DNA of 33,302 nucleotides from Armatimonadota bacterium (lineage in GTDB: Bacteria > Armatimonadota > Chthonomonadetes > Chthonomonadales > JAMCWF01): positions 1 through 33,302 of the forward strand of contig JAMCWF010000005.1 of NCBI GenBank assembly GCA_023481295.1, written 5' to 3'. Numbering within the stretch: the stretch's first letter is position 1; each line of letters begins with the position of its first letter. Of the stretch, positions 240-20,567 are shown one piece after another. The notes under the pieces are model-generated. The model did no database searches. It saw only the letters and a program-made list of their open reading frames with translations, and was not told the origin of the DNA. The position numbers and the translations under genes are program-made.

Positions 240-360
240 TCTACGTAATTATTATCTTCTGACACATAATTAGCTTCTTCTAGTGTTAAGGACATGATGC
301 TCTGAATAATAATGCCGATTAAAATGTACGTCATCGAATGATCTCGAACCCCTTTTTGGA
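240..360. other. AT-rich intergenic stretch, nothing recognised
   Basis: This lies between the two repeat elements. I see no credible reading frame, promoter or terminator in it. Confidence 0.5.
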
Positions 361-524
361 GACTGTTGAAAAATACGGTAGCAACTCCTTGGTCGTCATT
401 TCGGGCCGCAAGGTGGAACCCGGAATCCTGCCCATCAGCACCCCTGTCTGCCGTTGGGCAAGGGATTGGATTCCTGATTTCGCGGGGGTGACGAAGTAAC
501 GGGATCCTACGGCTTTTTCAACCA
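361..524 (-). repeat. MITE-like element, family B copy 1 (164 bp)
   Basis: Its reverse complement aligns end to end with the 165-bp element at 20392-20556. The ends are imperfect inverted repeats of the form GGTTGWTRAAAAA. The interior carries the CTTCGTCA...CCGCGAAA and CCGGGTTCC...GACGACC segments shared by both copies. The open frame it contains encodes no protein (chance peptide FVTPAKSGIQ). It lies just beyond the 3' end of the S9 peptidase gene. Confidence 0.7.
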
Positions 525-557: not shown

Positions 558-3047
558 TTATTGATTTCCATCGTCACTGTGTCCCTTTTTATCACCTAAG
601 TCGACCGCGAACTGAACCGGCGGAAAGTCGCCTAATCGGAATTCGTAATCGGCCGCCCGATTCGGTACTGGAAAGAGCAAGCCGCCGGCAACTGCAATCC
701 GCCCGGCACCGTCATCGGCAAAAGTCTTTAACTTGAGGTAGTTGCTGAGCACCGGCGTCACGGTATCCAACACTTTTACCGGCACACCAATCGGCTTTAA
801 CCACTCGCTCCCGTTGTGTTGGCCGTCGGTACGCCGCAAGCCCGCGATCAGATGAAGCGGCAACTCCAGCTCCGAGCCCGCCAGATTATCTTCGATCAAG
901 GTAAATTCCACTTTGAGCAGCGCCATACTGTCAGGTTTCCATTTAATATCACTCAGCTCAGCCGAGGTGACGATAAGTTCCGCCTGAGACGACGTTTTAT
1001 CAATTCGCCCGATTATGCGGTCTCCAACCCGCTGCCGTAGGCCATCCTCCGTATTTTTCAGATAGCGATCCACCCAGGAGAGCGCTTGATTCATCTCGTC
1101 AACTCGGTGATTGGGCTCCTGCAGTCCATGCCCTTCTCGAGGATAGTGAATAAATCGGCAGGGAATCCCCCGCGCGTGCAACGACTGGTACATCTCCTTC
1201 GAGTTGCTGATGAAGGTGTTATTATCGCTTTCACCATGGATGATCAAAACCGGCGTTTGAATGCGATCCGCATAGGTGGCCGGCGATAGGCGCCGGTAGA
1301 TATCCGGATCCTCCCAGTAAAAACGCTCCAGATAGTCGGTGTCCCATCGCCAATAGTCGGAATTGCTGAAATCGGTGAAGAGGCTGAAAATGCCGAACAT
1401 CGAAACGGCGACCTTGAAACGATCGGACTGCGAGATGGCCCAGTTGGTCATATAGCCGCCGTAAGACCCGCCCATAATCGCGATGCGTTCGGGGTCAGCC
1501 AACCCTCGATCAACTAGGTAATCAATTCCGGCCATTACATCGCGAAAATCGCCGCCGCCTAGATCGCGCGCATTCGCCGTCGCAAAATCGTTGCCGTAGC
1601 CCTCGCTTCCCCGATAGTTCGGGCGAAAAACTAGATATCCCTCATCCGCCCATAGCGGATGCATGCAGTAGCTTCGCAGTGAATTGGTGGACCTACCTTT
1701 CGGCCCTCCATGAACCTGTACTACCAATGGACAGCGGTCTCCTTCCCGGTAATCTTGTGGAAAGGTAGCGATCCCCTCAATGGTCAGCCCGTCCTCCGAT
1801 TGCCAGTTAATGAGCTCGTGCCTCGGTGGTGCGTGATTGTCTAAAAAGCTACGGTTTAAAGATGATAGAGGCTTGGCTTCCCCGTTCTTTAGGTTCAACC
1901 AAACTAATTCCGGCGGCTCCGAACCGGTTTCGCGCACCAGCGCCAGGCCGTCTAAGCCGACGGCGAGATCGGTCGTGTCGAATCCTTCCGGAGCGCGGCG
2001 TACGGCCGACCCGAGCTGGGGCTCAATTTGAATCACATTGGTGTTGACACCGGCTGCAGCCAGGATATAGATATTACCGTCGTATCTTGACCAGCACATG
2101 TGGAGGACGTCATTACCCAGCGCACAGCAGACGTTCCGAAACTCACCCGTTTCGACCGAGACCATAAAGGCGGTATCAGTGGAAAAATTGCAGTTGGGAT
2201 CTGATATTGAAATGAAGGCGATCCACTGGCCGTTCGGTGACCAGCACGGCTGTATTTTACTTCCCGGCCGCTCCACCAGTTTTTTCGTCTCGCCGGTCTC
2301 CATATCCAGCAGCCATAAATCGAAACGGTGATAATCGCAGCCCTCACCGGTGTAATTGGTGATGAAAGCGACCCGCTTCCCATCAGGAGAAAGCACAAAG
2401 TAGGCGACTCCGTAATCCCCGGTATAGATATGTGTCGGTTCGTCACCTTCGATCGAGATGAGTTGAAGCTGCATCCTCAGCTTATCTTCGTTCTCAACCA
2501 CCGGATCAATCTTACGCTCACGCCGATTTTCGGTGCGCAAATTTTCGACCGGTGTTGGCCGTGGTTGAGGAGAGAGGATCATTAGCCTCGATCCATCCGG
2601 CATCCAGTGGAAGCGCTTGACTCCTTCGCGCTCATGCGTCACCTGCCTCGCCTCTCCGCCGTCGAGCGGCAGTACCCACAACTGCTCCTTGGGATCGCCA
2701 TCTTCGTCATCGGCCTCCTCGTCGCGATGATTTCCGGAGCGGGCTGAAAGAAATGCAAGTTTCCGACCATCCGGCGACCATCGCGGTGAGTGTTCCCCCT
2801 CCGGCGAAAAAGTGATTTGGCGGGAAGTACCGGCTTCAATATCGGCCAGCCACAGATGATCAACCCGCCTGCTCTCCTTAAAGTCTGCCTCGTTCACCGC
2901 GAATACGATCCGATTGCCATCCGGGTTGACCTCTGCGCTGTGCGGCGTCTTAATTCCGATCAAGGAGCGAGCGATTATCTTTTTCGCACCCCTCTTTTCC
3001 GCATGCACCGATTTACGACCGCCGGAATCCCCTCTTTTGGAGATCAA
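558..3047 (-). CDS. S9 family prolyl oligopeptidase / acylaminoacyl-peptidase-like serine peptidase
   Basis: 829 residues. Residues about 30-390 form a TolB/WD40-like beta-propeller with repeated WSPDGRKLAF-type PD40 motifs. Residues about 410-665 are the alpha/beta-hydrolase catalytic domain: nucleophile in GGSYGGYM (Ser528), acid in HGESD (Asp608), base in REGHG (His640). Enzymes of this family cleave short peptides or remove acylated N-terminal residues. No signal peptide is seen, so it is probably cytoplasmic. The last 160 residues form an extra, probably beta-rich domain beyond the usual family end. The start is TTG (3045-3047), chosen because a full AGGAGG (3054-3059) sits 7 nt upstream; no in-frame ATG lies nearby. 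It follows mutY by 58 bp on the same strand and is probably co-transcribed. The family is certain; the substrate is not. Confidence 0.93.
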   Translation of the reverse strand: MISKRGDSGGRKSVHAEKRGAKKIIARSLIGIKTPHSAEVNPDGNRIVFAVNEADFKESRRVDHLWLADIEAGTSRQITFSPEGEHSPRWSPDGRKLAFLSARSGNHRDEEADDEDGDPKEQLWVLPLDGGEARQVTHEREGVKRFHWMPDGSRLMILSPQPRPTPVENLRTENRRERKIDPVVENEDKLRMQLQLISIEGDEPTHIYTGDYGVAYFVLSPDGKRVAFITNYTGEGCDYHRFDLWLLDMETGETKKLVERPGSKIQPCWSPNGQWIAFISISDPNCNFSTDTAFMVSVETGEFRNVCCALGNDVLHMCWSRYDGNIYILAAAGVNTNVIQIEPQLGSAVRRAPEGFDTTDLAVGLDGLALVRETGSEPPELVWLNLKNGEAKPLSSLNRSFLDNHAPPRHELINWQSEDGLTIEGIATFPQDYREGDRCPLVVQVHGGPKGRSTNSLRSYCMHPLWADEGYLVFRPNYRGSEGYGNDFATANARDLGGGDFRDVMAGIDYLVDRGLADPERIAIMGGSYGGYMTNWAISQSDRFKVAVSMFGIFSLFTDFSNSDYWRWDTDYLERFYWEDPDIYRRLSPATYADRIQTPVLIIHGESDNNTFISNSKEMYQSLHARGIPCRFIHYPREGHGLQEPNHRVDEMNQALSWVDRYLKNTEDGLRQRVGDRIIGRIDKTSSQAELIVTSAELSDIKWKPDSMALLKVEFTLIEDNLAGSELELPLHLIAGLRRTDGQHNGSEWLKPIGVPVKVLDTVTPVLSNYLKLKTFADDGAGRIAVAGGLLFPVPNRAADYEFRLGDFPPVQFAVDLGDKKGHSDDGNQ

Positions 3048-3105
3048 CTGGTTTCCTCCTCATCAATTGACATAGGTAGCGGATATATTATACAGATTCG
3101 TTTAC

Positions 3106-4221
3106 TTAATCTAGTGCTGTCCACAAACCGACTGCTTTCAGCGCCCGCCGCTGGGGTGAAGTGATGGCCAGCTCGTGAAATTGATCCGGTTGTGCCCATC
3201 TTATCCGGCTACAGCCAATCGGTACCGGATCCCCATCTCCAACAGCAGTTATTACATATAGTTGGATGCGGTGATGGGTTACTGTGTGGCTTATATTGGC
3301 CACGATCTCATGGGGCGTCAAATGCATACCGACTACCTCAATGCCGGCTCGTACCGCCGCCGCTAAAACTCCCTCACCGTCATGGCATACGACCCGCGGC
3401 ATCTCCCACATACCCGCCCACCACCCGCCGTTAGGCCGCTGGCAGAGCAACAGATCGCCGTTTTCCCGCCGGATCATTGCGCTGACATGGGTCTGTTCAA
3501 CAATTAAGCGCGATTCCAGTCGTTCAGGGTATTGGGCTGGATTCCCATTAATGTAGGCCCGGCAGCGGTCAGCAAGGGGGCATTCGCTGCACCGAGGACG
3601 AAGCGGCAAACAGATCGTTGCGCCTAAATCCATCATCGCCTGGTTGAAATCGCCAACCCGCCGTTCGGGCAAGATACGGTGTGCAATTTCCAGGATTTGA
3701 TTTCGAACGCGGCCGGATTTACGGGGATTACCGGCGATTTGAAAGAGCCGCGCGACCACTCGGCTTACGTTTCCATCCACCGCCGGCACCCTCACACCAA
3801 AAGCGATTGAGGCGATCGCCCCCGCCGTATAGCAGCCGACTCCGGGCAGCCGTCTTAACAGCACTGGATCAGAGGGGATTTGGCCTTCGTACTGCTCCAC
3901 CACCACTTGGGCCAACCGCCGGATGGCGCGTGCCCTGGAGTAGTACCCTAACCCCGCCCAAACAGAACAAACCTCCAACTCGCTTGCAACGGCCAAAGCT
4001 TCCAATGTTGGAAATCGGCTGAGGAAGCGGCGGTAATAAGGCTCGACGGCCGCAGCTTGCGTCTGCTGCAGCATAAACTCGGCAACCAGCGTGGCATATG
4101 AGCTGGGCGATGGTCTCCAGGAAAGTGGACGTGAATTACGGTCATACCACTGTAGCAGCGGCTGCCCGATATCCTTCGAGGTTAGATTGGTGTCATCCAA
4201 GTGAGTGGAAGTAGCTTTCAA
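3106..4221 (-). CDS. mutY: A/G-specific adenine DNA glycosylase MutY
   Basis: 371 residues, about the usual MutY length. It removes adenine mispaired with 8-oxoguanine in base-excision repair. The HhH-GPD core has EFMLQQTQ with catalytic Glu48, the helix-hairpin-helix LPGVGCYTAGA (about 125-135) and VPAVDGNV with Asp149. A [4Fe-4S] motif C-X6-C-X2-C-X5-C is formed by Cys204, 211, 214 and 220. The C-terminal part (about 235-371) is the NUDIX-like domain that reads 8-oxoG. The frame starts at TTG (4219-4221) with no good Shine-Dalgarno; another TTG at codon 8 is possible, and the nearest upstream ATG is out of frame. It is divergent from the DUF4177 gene and first in a likely two-gene unit with the S9 peptidase. 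Confidence 0.95.
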   Translation of the reverse strand: MKATSTHLDDTNLTSKDIGQPLLQWYDRNSRPLSWRPSPSSYATLVAEFMLQQTQAAAVEPYYRRFLSRFPTLEALAVASELEVCSVWAGLGYYSRARAIRRLAQVVVEQYEGQIPSDPVLLRRLPGVGCYTAGAIASIAFGVRVPAVDGNVSRVVARLFQIAGNPRKSGRVRNQILEIAHRILPERRVGDFNQAMMDLGATICLPLRPRCSECPLADRCRAYINGNPAQYPERLESRLIVEQTHVSAMIRRENGDLLLCQRPNGGWWAGMWEMPRVVCHDGEGVLAAAVRAGIEVVGMHLTPHEIVANISHTVTHHRIQLYVITAVGDGDPVPIGCSRIRWAQPDQFHELAITSPQRRALKAVGLWTALD

Positions 4222-4246
4222 ACGGCCGTCTCATGCCAAATCAATT

Positions 4247-4269
4247 GGTTGCCAGAGTGCAACCTTTTT
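4247..4269. promoter_or_regulatory. Hairpin in the mutY / DUF4177 divergent intergenic region
   Basis: GGTTGC (4247-4252) pairs with GCAACC (4259-4264) around a 6-nt loop and is followed on the plus strand by TTTTTA. The shape is that of a short intrinsic terminator. No plus-strand gene ends here, so it may instead be a leader hairpin for mutY on the minus strand or a barrier to antisense transcription. Confidence 0.35.
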
Positions 4270-4370
4270 ATCTATTTTATCGTCTAATTTCTTAGTGCTG
4301 ACGGTATTTTTGCAACCCGCAGCGCTCACCAGACACTATAAGGACGGATCACGTCAAGGAGGTAACCCGG

Positions 4371-4577
4371 ATGGCCGAGTCGGCGACGGTGGAACCAATC
4401 AGTGGCGTCGGGCAACGCTGGGAGTATCTGGTTGAGAGCATTCATGCTCGCCAATTGAACGTATTGCAGCAGGAGTTGACCCAACGGGGCGAGCAAGGTT
4501 GGGAGCTCGTCTGCATGCAAATACCGGTTGGAAATGAGTTTGAATGCATCTTCAAGCGGCCTGTATCGTCCACTTAA
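4371..4577 (+). CDS. DUF4177 family small protein
   Basis: 68 residues. The pattern RWEYLVESI...LNVLQQELTQRGEQGWELVCM...FECIFKRP matches DUF4177: WEY at the start, a helix, GWELV, then a closing FKRP strand. The family is a small single-domain fold of unknown function. The start is supported by AAGGAGGT (4356-4363) 7 nt before ATG, one of the best ribosome sites in the window. A weak TTGCAA (4310-4315) and a TATAAG-like box (4337-4342) may be the promoter but are poorly spaced. It is followed by a terminator-like hairpin and, beyond that, by the cassette's attC site. Confidence 0.88.
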   Translation: MAESATVEPISGVGQRWEYLVESIHARQLNVLQQELTQRGEQGWELVCMQIPVGNEFECIFKRPVSST

Positions 4578-4612
4578 TCTTCAAAAACACAACGTCTCAG
4601 AAATCAAACCGT

Positions 4613-4664
4613 GGCGCTATTGAGATGTTCGCTTGCAAAGCAGCATACCAATAGCGCCGTTTTA
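4613..4664 (+). terminator. Intrinsic terminator-like hairpin after the DUF4177 gene
   Basis: A perfect 10-bp stem, GGCGCTATTG (4613-4622) with CAATAGCGCC (4649-4658), encloses a 26-nt loop that holds a small inner GCTT/AAGC stem. It is followed by GTTTTA. It lies 35 bp past the stop codon. Before the cassette inserted, it would have lain between two convergent genes. Confidence 0.6.
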
Positions 4665-4681
4665 CTCTCGTGCCGAAAACA

Positions 4682-4745
4682 ATCCAACGTTTGAGTTCAG
4701 CGGCGCGCCGCTTTTTGGCGCGTCCGCTGGAACGATTTGTTGGGC
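4682..4745 (-). other. attC: Integron-type attC recombination site (64 bp)
   Basis: Read on the minus strand the site starts with R'' GCCCAAC (RYYYAAC) and ends with R' GTTGGAT (GTTRRRY). Between them a 15-nt arm, GTTCAGCGGCGCGCC, pairs perfectly with 4695-4709 once two bases (4723 and 4729) are left out of the helix. These two extrahelical bases on one arm are a hallmark of attC sites recognised as folded single strands by integron integrases. The loop is AAAAAGC, and unpaired spacers separate the R and L boxes. It lies directly 3' of the methyltransferase gene, the normal place and orientation for a cassette attC. This rests on sequence pattern alone; no covariance search was run. Confidence 0.85.
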
Positions 4746-4757
4746 GTCTTTGGATGT

Positions 4758-5807
4758 CTACCTCGTTTCTGCCCCAGAAAGAAACAGCGCTCCTTGCACC
4801 AGAGACTCATCTTTTGACTTTGCTTTCTTGGCGGGCTCTAATGCGCAGACTGTCTCATCAATAAAGAAATTGGCATGACTATCGTTCATCTCTCCCAATA
4901 CTCGCTTCACGGTCTCAGAACTATGCCCATCAAGGAACCGAAATACCGATGGAGCAAGATATTCCTGATTCATCTCAAAGGTTAGCCACGTGCGCTTTAG
5001 AGCTTCGGCGGTAAATCCAGTGGTGTTTGATCCTCCAAAAATATCAAGAACGATATCGCCCTCGTCGGTCAGCAACTTGATAAAGAACGCTGGAAGTTCT
5101 GAAGGGAATCGCGCCGGATGGCGTTCAAGTCCTAGTTCCTTGCAGAGTCGGAGATAACTTGAGTTGCTGTCGGTGTTCGGTATAGAAAGAAGGTTGGAAG
5201 GAATGGCCCCTCCATTATCTTTGCCAAACCCAGCACTTATGTCATGACCTGAAGGGCGTTTTTTTGGCGTGTAGAAGCTCTCAGGATCCTCAATCAACTT
5301 TTTCATCCGATCTGAATATGGCGCCAGCACTTTTCGAACGTCGGCTTTCGGAAAATCAGTCTTACTAAACCACCACACAGTGTTAACGGAATCCTTTGCT
5401 CGTATTTTTCGCTTGTTTACCCATTCAATTGGTGACGGTAACTTTGCCGGATTGAACCAGTAGAAATCTTCGGCAAGATGAAACCCAATTTCGTCGCAAA
5501 ATGCCAAGAGTACGCGGAAGTTATATAGAGAACGGGATGGCATACCTAAGCGATATGCTCCCCCTAAATCGAGAACAAAGCTTCCGCTTTCCTTGAGTAC
5601 GCGGAAGACCTCTTGGCCAAATGGTTTTATCCATTGAACGTACTCTGTTTCCTCGACGTTGCCATAGCTCTTTTGCCGCCGAAGCGCGAACGGTGGCGAA
5701 GTCATGACCAGATCAATGCTATTGTCGGGCAATTCCGCGAGAAGATTAAGAGAATCTCCAACATAAGCCTGGCCTTTAGCGGTGCGGTAAAGCGGTTTGC
5801 TCTTCAT
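4758..5807 (-). CDS. Site-specific DNA methyltransferase, N4-cytosine type, PvuII-like (class beta)
   Basis: 349 residues. Catalytic motif IV TSPPF (36-40) precedes the AdoMet-binding motif DIFGGSNTTG (255-264), the class-beta order. SPPF rather than DPPY points to cytosine-N4 methylation. From memory, long stretches (VMTSPPFAL, LPSPIEWVNKRKIR, VNTVWWFSKT, LAPYSDRMKKLIEDP) strongly resemble M.PvuII, which methylates CAGCTG; that this enzyme shares the target is inference. The ATG lies 1 nt after the TGA of the upstream gene (TGATATG), so translation is probably coupled. It is the last gene of the putative cassette, 12 bp before attC. The 30-residue tail after about 310 diverges from the family. 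Confidence 0.93.
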   Translation of the reverse strand: MKSKPLYRTAKGQAYVGDSLNLLAELPDNSIDLVMTSPPFALRRQKSYGNVEETEYVQWIKPFGQEVFRVLKESGSFVLDLGGAYRLGMPSRSLYNFRVLLAFCDEIGFHLAEDFYWFNPAKLPSPIEWVNKRKIRAKDSVNTVWWFSKTDFPKADVRKVLAPYSDRMKKLIEDPESFYTPKKRPSGHDISAGFGKDNGGAIPSNLLSIPNTDSNSSYLRLCKELGLERHPARFPSELPAFFIKLLTDEGDIVLDIFGGSNTTGFTAEALKRTWLTFEMNQEYLAPSVFRFLDGHSSETVKRVLGEMNDSHANFFIDETVCALEPAKKAKSKDESLVQGALFLSGAETR

Positions 5808-5808
5808 A

Positions 5809-7284
5809 TCAGTATTCTCTAAGGTCGTTTACCCAGCTCGACACGATCTGCCACAACACACTTGCAGCAAAATAGACTTGCGGGTCTGCCTTGCAGATAG
5901 CTTCAACATCGGCCTGAACGAAGTTATCTTTCCCATAGCCGACGATATAACTCAGCCACTTTCTTAGGTTCTCATCAGCCCCGGTAACGATCTCTGATGG
6001 ATCGAATTGGCCAATTCTAGCAAGTACCCATGATAGGCCATCGCGCTTGGTAGGGTCACCGTTCTTCAGAAGATCAATCAGGTGAGGAATTTGTGGCTCT
6101 GCAATCCGCAAAAGCGCACGCGCAGCCTCGACCTTGATCTCTAATGGGCTTGAGTTGAACATATCAACAAGTGCTGTTGCTGATGTGGCAGAAGCGAATT
6201 GACCAAGTGCCCATGCTGCACCAGCACGCAGCTCGTCGTCTCGTTGGGTATCTCGCAAGACTTCGATCAGCAGCTGTTCGCTCCGGCTCTTGGGTATTTC
6301 GGATGTGACAATGACTGTTTCAAGCTGCGTTTCAAGGGGAATCGTCATGACCGGACTACGTAGCTTGTTTTCTATGAACTCCCAGCCGTTTGGGTCGTCA
6401 TATGCGGCAAGTGCAGCCGCTGCCTCCAGTTGGACGTAAATATCCTCATCAACATCACGCATCCTGGATTCGAGCACTGGCTTGGCGGTGGTGTAACCTC
6501 TGTACCGTAACGCTTTGGCAGCAGCATACCGTTCGCTCAGGTTGACGCTTGCAAGTTTGTCTATGAAATATGCCTCACTGACCGAAGTGGGGCATTGAAT
6601 CACGGTGCTGACCGGCACGACCGCCGCAACGATCTGATTGGTCTCAACAATTTCACCAACGTTGACCTGTGGTAGCAAGGTTATCTTGCCTTTGTTCCGG
6701 CTCAATTGGATTGATTGTTTCCGTGTCTCCGTGATAGGGGTAAGGCTGATCCTACCGGGTTCTATTGCCGTAACAACTGATTGCAGGTTGGCGGCAGCAC
6801 ACGTCCACATCACCCGTATTTCTGATCCTTCCTCAACCCCTTTTGGCTGAGTGATGGATACCTGTCCTACAGTAAATGCCCTCCGCATGTCTCTCACGCT
6901 GACGAAGTGGACAGGTGAGACTTGCTTAAGGTCTATCGGGGAATCGTCGTTTTGCTCGAAGACAACGATTGAAACAAGGTCGTCATCACGCATACCCGCA
7001 TCCCAAGCCCGCTTCGGGTCATTGAGAGAATGGGACATTGATATTTCAAGCTTTGTCTTTCCTCGGGATTCAAATCGCATTCCCGTGTTCAAACAGAGAA
7101 CGTCAGGAACCCGTACACGTTTGATTTTTATCTTTTTCCATATCTTGAAACCTGTTGAGCCACGTTCAAGCTCAATGGGGTTGAATCCCATCGCTTTTAG
7201 TCGATTAATTGTCGCATTTGTGCCTGCTGCTCCAACCGCGAGCTTTCGTAGGAAACTATCGTCACTTTTGAAGTTATTTGCCAC
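5809..7284 (-). CDS. HEAT-repeat protein with a possible nuclease-like N-terminal domain; candidate restriction partner
   Basis: 491 residues, no recognised family name. The N-terminal part has a Lys/Arg-rich stretch followed by RVPDVLCLNTG (Pro60-Asp61) and RFESRGKTKLEISMSHS (Glu72, Lys76, Lys78). The spacing recalls a PD-(D/E)XK nuclease, but I cannot confirm the fold. Residues about 230-485 contain HEAT-like helical repeats such as RYAAAKALRYRGY, LRAGAAWALGQFAS and IKVEAARALLRIA, usual in protein- or DNA-binding scaffolds. The start is GTG (7282-7284) with a weak ribosome site; no in-frame ATG lies upstream. It overlaps nothing and couples to the methyltransferase through TGATATG. A restriction role is inferred from that pairing; it could also be a DNA-binding accessory protein. 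Confidence 0.8.
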   Translation of the reverse strand: MANNFKSDDSFLRKLAVGAAGTNATINRLKAMGFNPIELERGSTGFKIWKKIKIKRVRVPDVLCLNTGMRFESRGKTKLEISMSHSLNDPKRAWDAGMRDDDLVSIVVFEQNDDSPIDLKQVSPVHFVSVRDMRRAFTVGQVSITQPKGVEEGSEIRVMWTCAAANLQSVVTAIEPGRISLTPITETRKQSIQLSRNKGKITLLPQVNVGEIVETNQIVAAVVPVSTVIQCPTSVSEAYFIDKLASVNLSERYAAAKALRYRGYTTAKPVLESRMRDVDEDIYVQLEAAAALAAYDDPNGWEFIENKLRSPVMTIPLETQLETVIVTSEIPKSRSEQLLIEVLRDTQRDDELRAGAAWALGQFASATSATALVDMFNSSPLEIKVEAARALLRIAEPQIPHLIDLLKNGDPTKRDGLSWVLARIGQFDPSEIVTGADENLRKWLSYIVGYGKDNFVQADVEAICKADPQVYFAASVLWQIVSSWVNDLREY

Positions 7285-7351
7285 TGCACCACCATAAGGA
7301 ATTTATTGGATAAATCAGTGTAGCTACATGTGCCATCTTGACGCCCAACCA

Positions 7352-8062
7352 TTAATTGATTTGCTGGCCCGGCTCCAACACGATGATTTCCAAATCGTGG
7401 AGATGGGACGTCAATTTCTTTAACTGCTCTACCGTGCCGGTAAGCAGCGGAAATGTACCGTAATGCATGGGAATGACGCAGGGTGCCTTTAACAATTCAA
7501 TCGCCTTGGCCGCCTCGAGCGGTCCCATCGTGAAGTGATCACCGATCGGCAGCAGCGCAACATCGGGGTGGTACAGCTCACCGATTAAGGCCATCTCACT
7601 GAATACGGCAGTATCCCCTGCGTGGTAGATGGCCATCTCGTTGTTGAATCGCACCACGTAGCCGGCCGCCTCGCCGCCGTATAGGATTTGCTCCCCATCG
7701 GAGATACCGCAGGAGTGCAGGGCGTGGGTCATCGTCACCGATACATCATCCACCTTCTGGGTGCCGCCCTTATTCATGGGTAACAGGTTGCCGACGCCCT
7801 TTTTGCCCAACCATGAGATGGTCTCGACCATCCCCACCACCTTTGCATTGGTCTCTTTAGCCAACGAAACAGCATCCCCGATATGATCAAAGTGGGCGTG
7901 CGTGATCAGCATTGCGTCGAGCCGGCTCAGCTTTTTGAGACTGGCGGGGCAAGCCGGATTGCTGGCGACCCAAGGGTCAATCAGTATCCGCATCCCAGCC
8001 GGCTCCTCAAGCAGAAAAGTGGCGTGCCCCAACCAGGTTATTGAAATTCCATTCAGTTGCAT
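7352..8062 (-). CDS. UPF0173 family metal-dependent hydrolase (metallo-beta-lactamase fold)
   Basis: 236 residues, close to the usual family length. The metal site is seen in THAHFDHIGD (about 54-63), with further ligands in the HAGDT and PMHYGTFP stretches. The N-terminal ITWLGHATFLLE is typical of the YtkL/UPF0173 group. The physiological substrate is unknown for the family. ATG at 8060-8062 is preceded by GGAGGG at 6 nt. It follows mazG by about 60 bp as the last native gene of this operon. The gene stops three bases before the putative cassette junction, so the insertion spared it but separated it from any original downstream terminator. Confidence 0.92.
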   Translation of the reverse strand: MQLNGISITWLGHATFLLEEPAGMRILIDPWVASNPACPASLKKLSRLDAMLITHAHFDHIGDAVSLAKETNAKVVGMVETISWLGKKGVGNLLPMNKGGTQKVDDVSVTMTHALHSCGISDGEQILYGGEAAGYVVRFNNEMAIYHAGDTAVFSEMALIGELYHPDVALLPIGDHFTMGPLEAAKAIELLKAPCVIPMHYGTFPLLTGTVEQLKKLTSHLHDLEIIVLEPGQQIN

Positions 8063-8121
8063 GACGATCCCTCCATCAAGCGTCGCAGATTTTCAATGAT
8101 ACGATTCATAGAGAATTCGAG

Positions 8122-9597
8122 CTAACGAGTTTCAACCGATGAAGCGATACCCTCTTGCGCCTTGACCATCTCCCAGAGCTCATCGAGCTTTTCGGGTCCC
8201 AAATCGCTGAGGTTTATGCCCCGCTCCTGCGCATCATTCTCCATGCCTCGGAACCGGCGCTCAAATCGTCCGACCATCGTCCGCAGGGCATCCTCCGGAT
8301 CAATCCGGCTCCATCGCGCTAAATTTACTATCGTAAACAAGAGGTCTCCCACCTCCCACTCCACCGCTTCATGATTATCGTTTATAATCGCCTCTTTCAG
8401 CTCCGCTACCTCTTCATCCAGCTTCACCAGCACCGAATCGCGATCCGGCCAATCAAATCCGACCCGCGCCGCCTTCTTTGAGATTTCCAGCGCTTTCATC
8501 AGCGCAGGAAGGTCTTTCGGTACACCATCCAGCGCAGAAGGTCGCCAGTTCTCGCCCTTTTCCGCTCTCTTAATCTGCTCCCAGTTTCGAAGCACGTGCT
8601 CCGCGCTCTCCACCTTGACATCGCCGAACACGTGCGGATGGCGGTTTAACAATTTGACCGTGATGGCCTCGATCACATCGTCTATGTCGAAGTAGCCTTC
8701 CTCACTCGCAAGCTGAGCTTGAAATATGGGCTGCAACAGCAGATCGCCCAGCTCTTCACAAAGGCTCTCCATCTCGATCCGGTCAATCGCCTCGATGACT
8801 TCATAAGCCTCTTCAATCAGATAGCGCCGCAGGGTTTGGTGGGTCTGCTGCCGATCCCAGGGACAACCGCCTTCCCCGCGCAGCCGCGCCATGATCTCTA
8901 CCAGGTCGGCAAAGCTTGGCCTTCTCCTCTCTAACGGAACCGGCGGCAGATAAAGGCTGGTTAGATAGTTGAAGTTTCGGCGATCGAGCTGGAATAGGGG
9001 GATTTTTTCAATTCGCTGTTGTCCCTCCACTCCAGCCGCATCCACAACCGTAATTTCCCAATCATCCGGGTATATCTGTTGAAGGGTGAGCTTCACCTCC
9101 GAGGCACTGCTCTGATCCGGTACCTGGAAGATGACGGCCGGCAGCGCTGGGTTCAGATTCGTTCGTTTGAGGGACAGCCCATCCAACAATTGGACGCCAT
9201 CCCCCACCGATAGATTCAACGCGGCGCATACGGCCTCAAAGAAGCTGGGTGATGCGACCACTTTCATCTCAATGCCCTGGGTATTTGCCATCTCGATGAT
9301 CAACTCCACCGATTTCTCGGCCACCAGTGGATGGCCAGGCACGGCATAAACGACATCGCCACCAGTTGCTTCGGTGAGTACCCTATCGGCGATGCTCCGG
9401 TAGAGCGATTCGTAGTCCAGCGCATCATCATAAAGGTAGTCCAGATCGGCAAATTCAATGCCCTGTTCGCGAATCCAATCAACGACTGGGTGTCTGGAGG
9501 TTCGCAAGATCACTTTGCGGGCACTTTGCAATGAATTTAGGGCAGCCGAACTGATATCGTTACGGCCGCCCGGCCCCAAGCCAACGATCAGGATCAT
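8122..9597 (-). CDS. mazG: Tetrapyrrole methylase-MazG fusion (YabN-type nucleoside triphosphate pyrophosphohydrolase)
   Basis: 491 residues in two parts. Residues 1-220 are a SAM-dependent tetrapyrrole (corrin/porphyrin) methylase-like domain starting MILIVGLGPGG, with AVPGHPLVAE near 85-94. Residues 228-480 are MazG, with GGCPWDRQQTH and two EExxE...ELGD-type metal sites (Glu262/263/266 with Asp285; Glu395/396/399 with Asp418). MazG hydrolyses NTPs to NMP and pyrophosphate and cleans the nucleotide pool. The fusion is typical of Gram-positive bacteria and Armatimonadota-like lineages; the methylase part is often regarded as non-catalytic. ATG at 9595-9597 has GAGGCG upstream. It lies 22 bp after the foldase gene in one operon. 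Confidence 0.95.
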   Translation of the reverse strand: MILIVGLGPGGRNDISSAALNSLQSARKVILRTSRHPVVDWIREQGIEFADLDYLYDDALDYESLYRSIADRVLTEATGGDVVYAVPGHPLVAEKSVELIIEMANTQGIEMKVVASPSFFEAVCAALNLSVGDGVQLLDGLSLKRTNLNPALPAVIFQVPDQSSASEVKLTLQQIYPDDWEITVVDAAGVEGQQRIEKIPLFQLDRRNFNYLTSLYLPPVPLERRRPSFADLVEIMARLRGEGGCPWDRQQTHQTLRRYLIEEAYEVIEAIDRIEMESLCEELGDLLLQPIFQAQLASEEGYFDIDDVIEAITVKLLNRHPHVFGDVKVESAEHVLRNWEQIKRAEKGENWRPSALDGVPKDLPALMKALEISKKAARVGFDWPDRDSVLVKLDEEVAELKEAIINDNHEAVEWEVGDLLFTIVNLARWSRIDPEDALRTMVGRFERRFRGMENDAQERGINLSDLGPEKLDELWEMVKAQEGIASSVETR

Positions 9598-11377: not shown

Positions 11378-11701
11378 CTCTTCATTCCTTTACCGTGCCG
11401 GAGCTGATTCACGCTTCTCTTCGTTTCAAACAGTGGAAGAGACAACCATCGGTTTCATTGAAACCATAACCATTGAATAACGGTAATGAAAGAAACGGTT
11501 GCATTTTAACGTTTTTCCATCTTCGTGCTATTTTATCACAAAAATGCCATTTCAACACTTTAATTCCACGCTTCCTTGGTCTATAATGTGTTATTCACCG
11601 TTCGCTTCAAGTTCAAAACGATGATGGTGACCATCGGATAAAACCCGGCGACTGAGCAGCTCGGTTTATCGCTGCCTATTAAAGAAAGGAGAAACGAACC
11701 G
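11378..11701. promoter_or_regulatory. Divergent intergenic region with palindromes
   Basis: This 324-bp region separates the foldase/mazG operon from the secreted-protein gene. It holds two short palindromes: GGTTTCATTGAAACC (11451-11465) and GATGGTGACCATC (11623-11635). The second lies between a TATAAT box and the start of the plus-strand gene and could be an operator or leader element. I see no clear minus-strand promoter. Confidence 0.4.
11559..11587 (+). promoter_or_regulatory. Candidate sigma-70 promoter for the secreted-protein gene
   Basis: A perfect -10 box TATAAT (11582-11587) lies 17 nt after a weak -35 (TTTAAT, 11559-11564). Transcription would start near 11594, giving a leader of about 105 nt that contains the palindrome at 11623-11635. 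Confidence 0.5.
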
Positions 11702-20271: not shown

Positions 20272-20567
20272 ATTTCAGCTATCTCCTGAATTGAAAGATT
20301 GATGCAGCAATATCTCAGCATAAACAATTGAGCCCCCTTTTCAAAATTAAAAAGTCAGTCCCAGCGAGCATTAAACATAGTTCCTCTAAGCGGTTGTGAA
20401 ACGCTCGCGGAAGTCTCACGCTTCGTCATTCCCGTGAAAGCGAGAATCAGGTCCCTGCCTACCGGCAGGCAGGGATGCTGATGGACTAAATTCCAAGTTC
20501 CGCTTTGCAGGTCCGGAATGACAACCAGAGGGGTGTTACCGTATTTTTTAACAACCATCTAAAGCAA
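20272..20567. other. Gap inside the efflux block, mostly a MITE
   Basis: These 296 bp separate the ABC permease from the HlyD adaptor; 20392-20556 is the family B element. The remaining 120 bp in front of the adaptor start are AT-rich. I could not identify a convincing separate promoter for the emrA-like gene. Confidence 0.5.
20392..20556 (+). repeat. MITE-like element, family B copy 2 (165 bp)
   Basis: The ends are GGTTGTGAAAC on the left and TTTTTTAACAACC on the right, imperfect inverted repeats. It aligns end to end with the inverted copy at 361-524, including GTTACCGTATTTTT near one end. The centre carries a nested palindrome CCTGCCTACCGGCAGG. It lies between the ABC-permease and HlyD genes and could form a strong hairpin in a read-through transcript. 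Confidence 0.7.

What the first reader, a model, noticed from the sequence alone, without database searches (positions are those of the whole stretch)
4682..7348. Lone integron-type cassette between housekeeping genes, with no integrase
A 64-bp site on the minus strand has every attC feature visible by eye: RYYYAAC and GTTRRRY ends, a 15-bp imperfect hairpin and two extrahelical bases on one arm. It directly follows the methyltransferase gene. The predicted 5' boundary GTTGGGC is the exact complement of the site's R'' box, as expected for a cassette that was once a free circle. Removing 4688-7348 restores a compact junction right after the UPF0173 stop. This suggests insertion of a single 2.66-kb cassette at a secondary GTT site in a chromosome.
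Basis: partly seen in the sequence, partly recalled or inferred. Interest (0 to 1): 0.87.

Follow-up and report, generated by a model that had tools for sequence, protein, structure and literature searches.

The report
Lone integron cassette carrying restriction-modification genes
A two-gene DNA module, probably a restriction-modification defence system, was inserted base-precisely as a single integron cassette into the chromosome of an Armatimonadota bacterium with no detectable integron integrase; near-identical copies sit in integrons of other phyla, and a sister genome shows the empty site.

Summary
A covariance model built from 18 other attC sites, this one excluded, hits 4682-4745(-) at 67.4 bits (E=3e-14), the best of the attC hits listed from 291 Armatimonadota genomes. 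A same-genus genome (97% complete) has the empty site: with 4688-7348 removed, the joined flanks align to it without a gap at the junction. The insert (HEAT-repeat protein plus M.PvuII-like methyltransferase) recurs at 82-87% DNA identity in Nitrospinae, Brocadiaceae and Betaproteobacteria, several with the same attC and the same GTTGGGC 5' boundary; in the Nitrospinae contig it lies beside an integron integrase. Nine of 14 tested carrier genomes encode an integron integrase; none of 31 genomes of the window's order does. The sister carries its own lone cassette (methyltransferase plus NotI-like nuclease) at another GTT site, empty in the window. This is a SALIN (single attC lacking integrase), best explained by attC recombination at a non-attI (attG-like) site, leaving a probably immobile defence module transcribed with upstream genes. 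The kind is known; new are the double empty-site proof, the host lineage and the cross-phylum spread.

The parts
4682..4745 (-). attC site: R'' GCCCAAC (4745-4739), stem with two extrahelical bases, R' GTTGGAT (4688-4682)
   Evidence: attC covariance model R1, window site excluded from training: 67.4 bits, E=3e-14, full length; folding z -4.0/-4.5
4688..7348 (-). complete inserted cassette, 2661 bp, from TTGGGC (7348) to G (4688) on the minus strand
   Evidence: absent from sister genome G001; joined flanks align without a gap at the junction; L052 matches the cassette over 2657 of 2661 bp at 85% DNA identity
4758..5807 (-). DNA methyltransferase, 349 aa, closest solved relative M.PvuII (N4-cytosine)
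   Evidence: Pfam N6_N4_Mtase; PADLOC MTase_II E=1e-156; PDB 1boo E=6e-138
5809..7284 (-). 491-aa protein: alpha/beta N-terminal half with invariant P60-D61, E72, K76, C-terminal HEAT repeats; putative restriction partner
   Evidence: HEAT_2; 24-sequence alignment; AlphaFold pLDDT 88.9; nuclease fold not confirmed
7343..7349 (-). 5' boundary box GTTGGGC, exact complement of R''; G is the host base, TTGGGC begins the cassette
   Evidence: sequence; same box at the matching place in L037, L039, L042, L051
7349..7354 (-). insertion point just after the UPF0173 stop codon; reconstructed target TCAATTAATGG^TTGGATTG
7352..8062 (-). upstream host gene (UPF0173 / metallo-beta-lactamase fold), 93% identical in the sister
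11445..11466 (-). empty site (TTCAATG^GTTATGG region) where sister G001 carries its own lone cassette of about 2.1 kb

Best explanation
This is a single integron gene cassette (SALIN). It once existed as a circle excised from an integron and was inserted by an integron-type tyrosine recombinase, through its folded attC strand, into a non-attI GTT site (attG-like, G^TTGGAT) just behind the UPF0173 gene. The recombinase is not in the part of the genome available and was probably supplied from outside or lost. With only one attC and no integrase the cassette is now essentially immobile. It lies in the same direction as the upstream operon, so its two genes are probably transcribed by read-through. 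The genes most likely form a type II restriction-modification system: an M.PvuII-like N4-cytosine methyltransferase and a HEAT-repeat protein that is the presumed endonuclease. Shown: the attC site, precise insertion, same cassette in integron settings, second case in the sister. Inferred: the enzyme that did it, transcription by read-through, and the nuclease role of the HEAT protein.
For: Blind attC model 67.4 bits, the only attC hit in the 1.23-Mb assembly and the top score among the listed phylum hits. Empty site in the sister, gap-free junction. R'' and the 5' boundary are exact complements, as a free circle requires. Same gene pair at up to 90-92% protein identity in many phyla; near-identical attC behind the pair in L066, L035, L039; integron integrase on the same Nitrospinae contig, divergent from the cassette; integrase in 9 of 14 carrier genomes against 0 of 31 in the order. 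Sister cassette B (methyltransferase plus NotI-like nuclease, attC-like end, G^TTATGC...G^TTATGG), whose site is empty in the window. GC of the insert 48.8% against 53-54% in the flanks.
Against: No integrase was found, so the enzyme is inferred. The host assembly is only 65% complete. Restriction activity is untested: the N-terminal half of the HEAT protein matched no solved nuclease. CAGCTG, the expected target if M.PvuII specificity is kept, is rarer in the sister (9 in 3.5 Mb) than in the host (35 in 1.23 Mb), so site avoidance gives no support.
Confidence: 0.9

Rival explanations
1. Remnant of a degraded integron: an integrase and more cassettes were once here and were deleted, leaving one cassette.
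For: Integrons occur in 10 of 291 genomes of the phylum, and arrays are known to decay.
Against: The empty site in the sister and the gap-free rejoining of the flanks leave no room for attI, intI or other cassettes; no integrase in the order; no other attC hit in the host assembly.
Confidence: 0.04
2. Ordinary horizontal transfer (homologous or illegitimate recombination) placed an R-M operon here, and the attC-like hairpin is a terminator or chance palindrome.
For: R-M genes move often; some copies (for example in Chlorobiaceae) have no attC behind them.
Against: The insert ends exactly at the attC cleavage point on both sides; the attC sequence is conserved with the genes across phyla and lies in arrays; sister cassette B shows the same geometry at another site.
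Confidence: 0.03
3. The insertion happened in another lineage with its own integrase, and the flanks plus cassette entered this genome by homologous recombination.
For: Explains the absence of an integrase in the genus; cannot be excluded with two genomes.
Against: The flanks are 86-87% identical to the sister on both sides, in step with much of the rest of the contig; two different cassettes at two sites would need two such transfers.
Confidence: 0.08
4. Metagenome assembly chimera.
For: The genome is a fragmented assembly, 65% complete, 71 contigs.
Against: A chimera would not join precisely at the two attC cleavage points, and the sister shows an independent case of the same geometry.
Confidence: 0.02

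Closest known systems
SALIN / CALIN (single attC, or cluster of attC, lacking integron-integrase; IntegronFinder terminology, PMC12690207, PMC9024848)
   Same: One attC behind a gene, no integrase nearby.
   Different: Here the insertion itself is documented by an empty site in a sister genome, and the same cassette is found in integron settings elsewhere. IntegronFinder reports single sites only on request, to limit false positives.
attG insertion of cassettes into bacterial genomes (Loot et al. 2024, doi 10.1038/s41564-023-01548-y; known to me through PMC12901181 and PMC12444791, paper itself not held)
   Same: Cassette in a non-attI, non-attC chromosomal site cut at G^TT.
   Different: Experimental work cited there was in E. 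coli; this is a natural case in an order without a detectable integrase. The published attG consensus could not be compared here.
Integron cassettes as phage-defence libraries (Darracq 2025, Kieffer 2025, Getz 2025; cited in PMC12444791 and PMC12409362)
   Same: Defence genes, including type II restriction, carried as cassettes.
   Different: Those lie in integrons; here the defence cassette stands alone in the chromosome.
M.PvuII (PDB 1boo)
   Same: Homology of the methyltransferase over residues 3-299, E=6e-138.
   Different: The partner is a HEAT-repeat protein of 491 aa; R.PvuII was not among its listed sequence or fold matches.

Membership tests
integron attC site | R'' RYYYAAC and R' GTTRRRY boxes, paired | tested here: met
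   GCCCAAC / GTTGGAT
integron attC site | imperfect stem with extrahelical bases on one arm, spacers of 5-6 nt | tested here: met
   full-length match to a covariance model of 18 attC sites, 67.4 bits against 16.2 on the other strand
integron attC site | recombines as folded bottom strand with an integron integrase | not testable with these tools
   needs a recombination assay
integron gene cassette | 5' boundary complementary to R'' (free-circle origin) | tested here: met
   GTTGGGC at minus 7349-7343
integron gene cassette | same unit found between attC sites or next to an integrase elsewhere | tested here: met
   L066/L120 with intI on the same contig; L037 with attC on both sides (downstream one weak, 15.8 bits); attC behind the pair in L035, L039
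SALIN | exactly one attC and no integron integrase nearby or in the genome | tested here: met
   one attC hit in the assembly; no TIGR02249 hit over cut-off in host, sister or order; host assembly only 65% complete
complete integron | intI gene plus attI | tested here: not met
attG-type insertion | precise insertion at a G^TT chromosomal site shown by an empty site | tested here: met
   G^TTGGAT, gap-free junction with sister
attG-type insertion | match to the published attG consensus | not tested
   the defining paper is not in the library
type II restriction-modification | site-specific DNA methyltransferase | tested here: met
   (homology; activity not tested)
type II restriction-modification | adjacent restriction endonuclease | tested here: inconclusive
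   HEAT protein beside the methyltransferase in most intact loci; invariant P60-D61/E72/K76, but no nuclease match by sequence or fold

The most novel reading that the evidence does not exclude
Bacterial lineages without an integron repeatedly capture single defence cassettes from other phyla at scattered GTT sites, with the integrase supplied transiently from outside (or with a host Xer recombinase acting on attC), so that much more of the chromosomal R-M repertoire than recognised is of integron origin.
Probability: 0.3. Interest if true: 0.75.

Novelty: new member of a known kind. Interest (0 to 1): 0.58.

Why it matters
Insertion of integron cassettes outside integrons has been shown experimentally and inferred from single attC sites, which are usually set aside as possible false positives. 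Here two sister genomes give reciprocal natural empty sites, and both carry probable R-M modules in an order with no detectable integrase. The same cassette can be followed across phyla at 82-87% DNA identity. That makes lone attC sites credible marks of real transfers, offers a way to trace R-M genes between phyla, and raises the testable question of where the integrase comes from.

Tried and rejected
Rfam scan of the locus: nothing. BLAST of the attC against plasmids: two weak partial hits, uninformative. HEAT protein against plasmids: none. One viral contig carries the pair at 76-80% protein identity with no attC hit. The TIGR02249 hit at C67 in the host is rejected as an integron integrase: it is below cut-off, broken into pieces and XerD-like, beside a deoB-like gene. 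CAGCTG avoidance as support for an active PvuII-like system: rejected, the sister without the cassette is more depleted. Foldseek of the whole HEAT protein listed only repeat proteins, and of the N-terminal half mainly a small barrel shared with RNA polymerase beta.

Full report
What was checked. The claimed 64-bp attC-like site is at 4682-4745 on the minus strand, exactly as described. To test it without bias I collected 18 attC sites, most from contigs that carry an integron integrase and one from a related locus. I left the window's site out, drew the known attC pairing (paired in 90.7% of cells against 72.4% in shuffles) and built a covariance model. It finds the window site at 67.4 bits, E 3e-14, over its whole length, and on the strand expected from the gene direction; the opposite strand scores 16.2 and the next place in the window 10 bits. 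In the 1.23-Mb host assembly it is the only hit, and among the hits listed from 291 Armatimonadota genomes it has the highest score.

Host. A genome of the same order, G004, is a single contig of 3,437,861 bp, the exact published size of Chthonomonas calidirosea T49 (PMC4959169). The window's organism is therefore an Armatimonadota bacterium of that order. Its assembly is 65% complete. A genome of the same genus, G001, is 97% complete.

Empty site. In G001 the flanks of the insert are contiguous: window 3215-4667 and 7351-9565 match one stretch at 86-87% identity with 21 bp between. When 4688-7348 is removed from the window and the flanks are joined, the two sequences align with no gap at the junction. 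The target on the minus strand was ...TCAATTAATGG^TTGGATTG..., directly after the UPF0173 stop codon. The seven bases at the 5' boundary, GTTGGGC, are the exact complement of R'', as expected if cassette start and attC were once joined in a circle. An assembly chimera would not produce this.

Second case. The sister has its own insert at another place. About 2.1 kb begins at G^TTATGC and ends with an attC-like hairpin at G^TTATGG. Its R'' box has lost one base and the model scores it 36.5 bits over positions 6-60. The insert encodes a DNA methyltransferase and a NotI-like nuclease. At this place the window has the empty site, and the rejoined sister flanks align to it without a gap at the junction. 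Two related genomes thus each carry a different lone cassette where the other has none, and both are probable restriction-modification modules.

Origin of the cassette. The methyltransferase search returned 52 loci from Betaproteobacteria, Chlorobiaceae, Planctomycetota, Nitrospinae, Brocadiaceae, Desulfobacterales, cyanobacteria and others. In most loci intact enough to judge, the same HEAT protein lies just upstream, often at 84-90% identity. The cassette DNA is 82-87% identical in the closest dozen, and the Brocadiaceae copy matches over 2657 of 2661 bp. Almost the same attC follows the genes in L066, L035 and L039, and the 5' boundary GTTGGGC lies at the matching place in L037, L039, L042 and L051, behind unrelated upstream DNA. 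On the Nitrospinae contig the cassette lies divergent from an integron integrase, as in an ordinary integron. Nine of 14 tested carrier genomes have an integrase over the family cut-off. In the phylum 10 of 291 do, none of them among the 31 genomes of the window's order.

Function. The methyltransferase is homologous over residues 3-299 to M.PvuII, an N4-cytosine enzyme. The HEAT protein has a conserved N-terminal half with invariant P60-D61, E72 and K76, which resembles a PD-(D/E)XK arrangement. The AlphaFold models are confident, but neither sequence nor fold searches confirm a nuclease. That it is the restriction partner rests on its regular pairing with the methyltransferase and is an inference. 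Expected CAGCTG avoidance gave no support.

Mechanism. Shown: a genuine attC, precise insertion at a G^TT site, the same unit in integron settings, and a second independent event. Inferred: insertion by an integron integrase acting on the folded attC strand and a non-attI site, as described for attG sites (Loot et al. 2024, known here through PMC12901181 and PMC12444791). The source of the enzyme is open: transient supply from a plasmid or phage, loss after insertion, or import of the inserted segment from a relative. With one attC and no integrase the cassette should be stable. It lies in the same direction as the upstream genes, 3 bp behind the UPF0173 stop, so read-through transcription is likely but untested.

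Novelty. Single attC sites without integrase (SALIN) are a named category (PMC12690207), and IntegronFinder 2.0 hides them by default to limit false positives while noting they can be real (PMC9024848). Defence cassettes in integrons are also known (PMC12409362, PMC12444791). I found no report of integrons or lone cassettes in Armatimonadota in the library searched, which is limited. The case is a well-documented new member of a known kind.

Noticed in passing
G048: L144 5560-5643, L145 5044-5129, L146 5324-5437, L147 5308-5391: An Armatimonadota genome with an integrase has attC sites alone on separate large contigs; each has the exact R'' complement 318-743 bp upstream, mostly enclosing one short gene. 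These look like scattered single cassettes; empty sites were not checked.
   Followed up: partly
L139 (G021:C709) 1073-5123: Four attC hits in a row, no integrase over cut-off in that genome, a few kb from ribosomal protein genes L10 and L7/L12 by eye: a possible CALIN in the window's order. The genome has 5% contamination.
   Followed up: partly
L140 5460-5522 and 9046-9099; L141 5144-5207: Three attC hits at separate places in G003 (same order, 99% complete, no integrase), each behind a short accessory gene by eye. Candidates for further lone cassettes.
   Followed up: partly
L120 3770-5347: In the Nitrospinae integron the region in front of the HEAT gene starts with GTTGGGCGTC and holds two more genes, one TIR-like and one a short membrane protein by eye, before the HEAT and methyltransferase genes; it may be a larger four-gene version of the cassette.
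   Followed up: no
G000 and G001 whole genomes: CAGCTG is very rare: 35 in 1.23 Mb in the host and 9 in 3.5 Mb in the sister, which lacks the M.PvuII-like gene pair at this locus; G005 has 125 in 4.5 Mb. Unexplained.
   Followed up: partly
L049, L050, L068, L075: Chlorobiaceae genomes carry several full and broken copies of the methyltransferase within a few kb of each other; no attC was found behind the copies examined (L043, L049).
   Followed up: no
window 352-428 and 20454-20565: Short stretches of the window match a stretch at L033 3748-3859 in the sister although they lie at different places: a small dispersed repeat.
   Followed up: no
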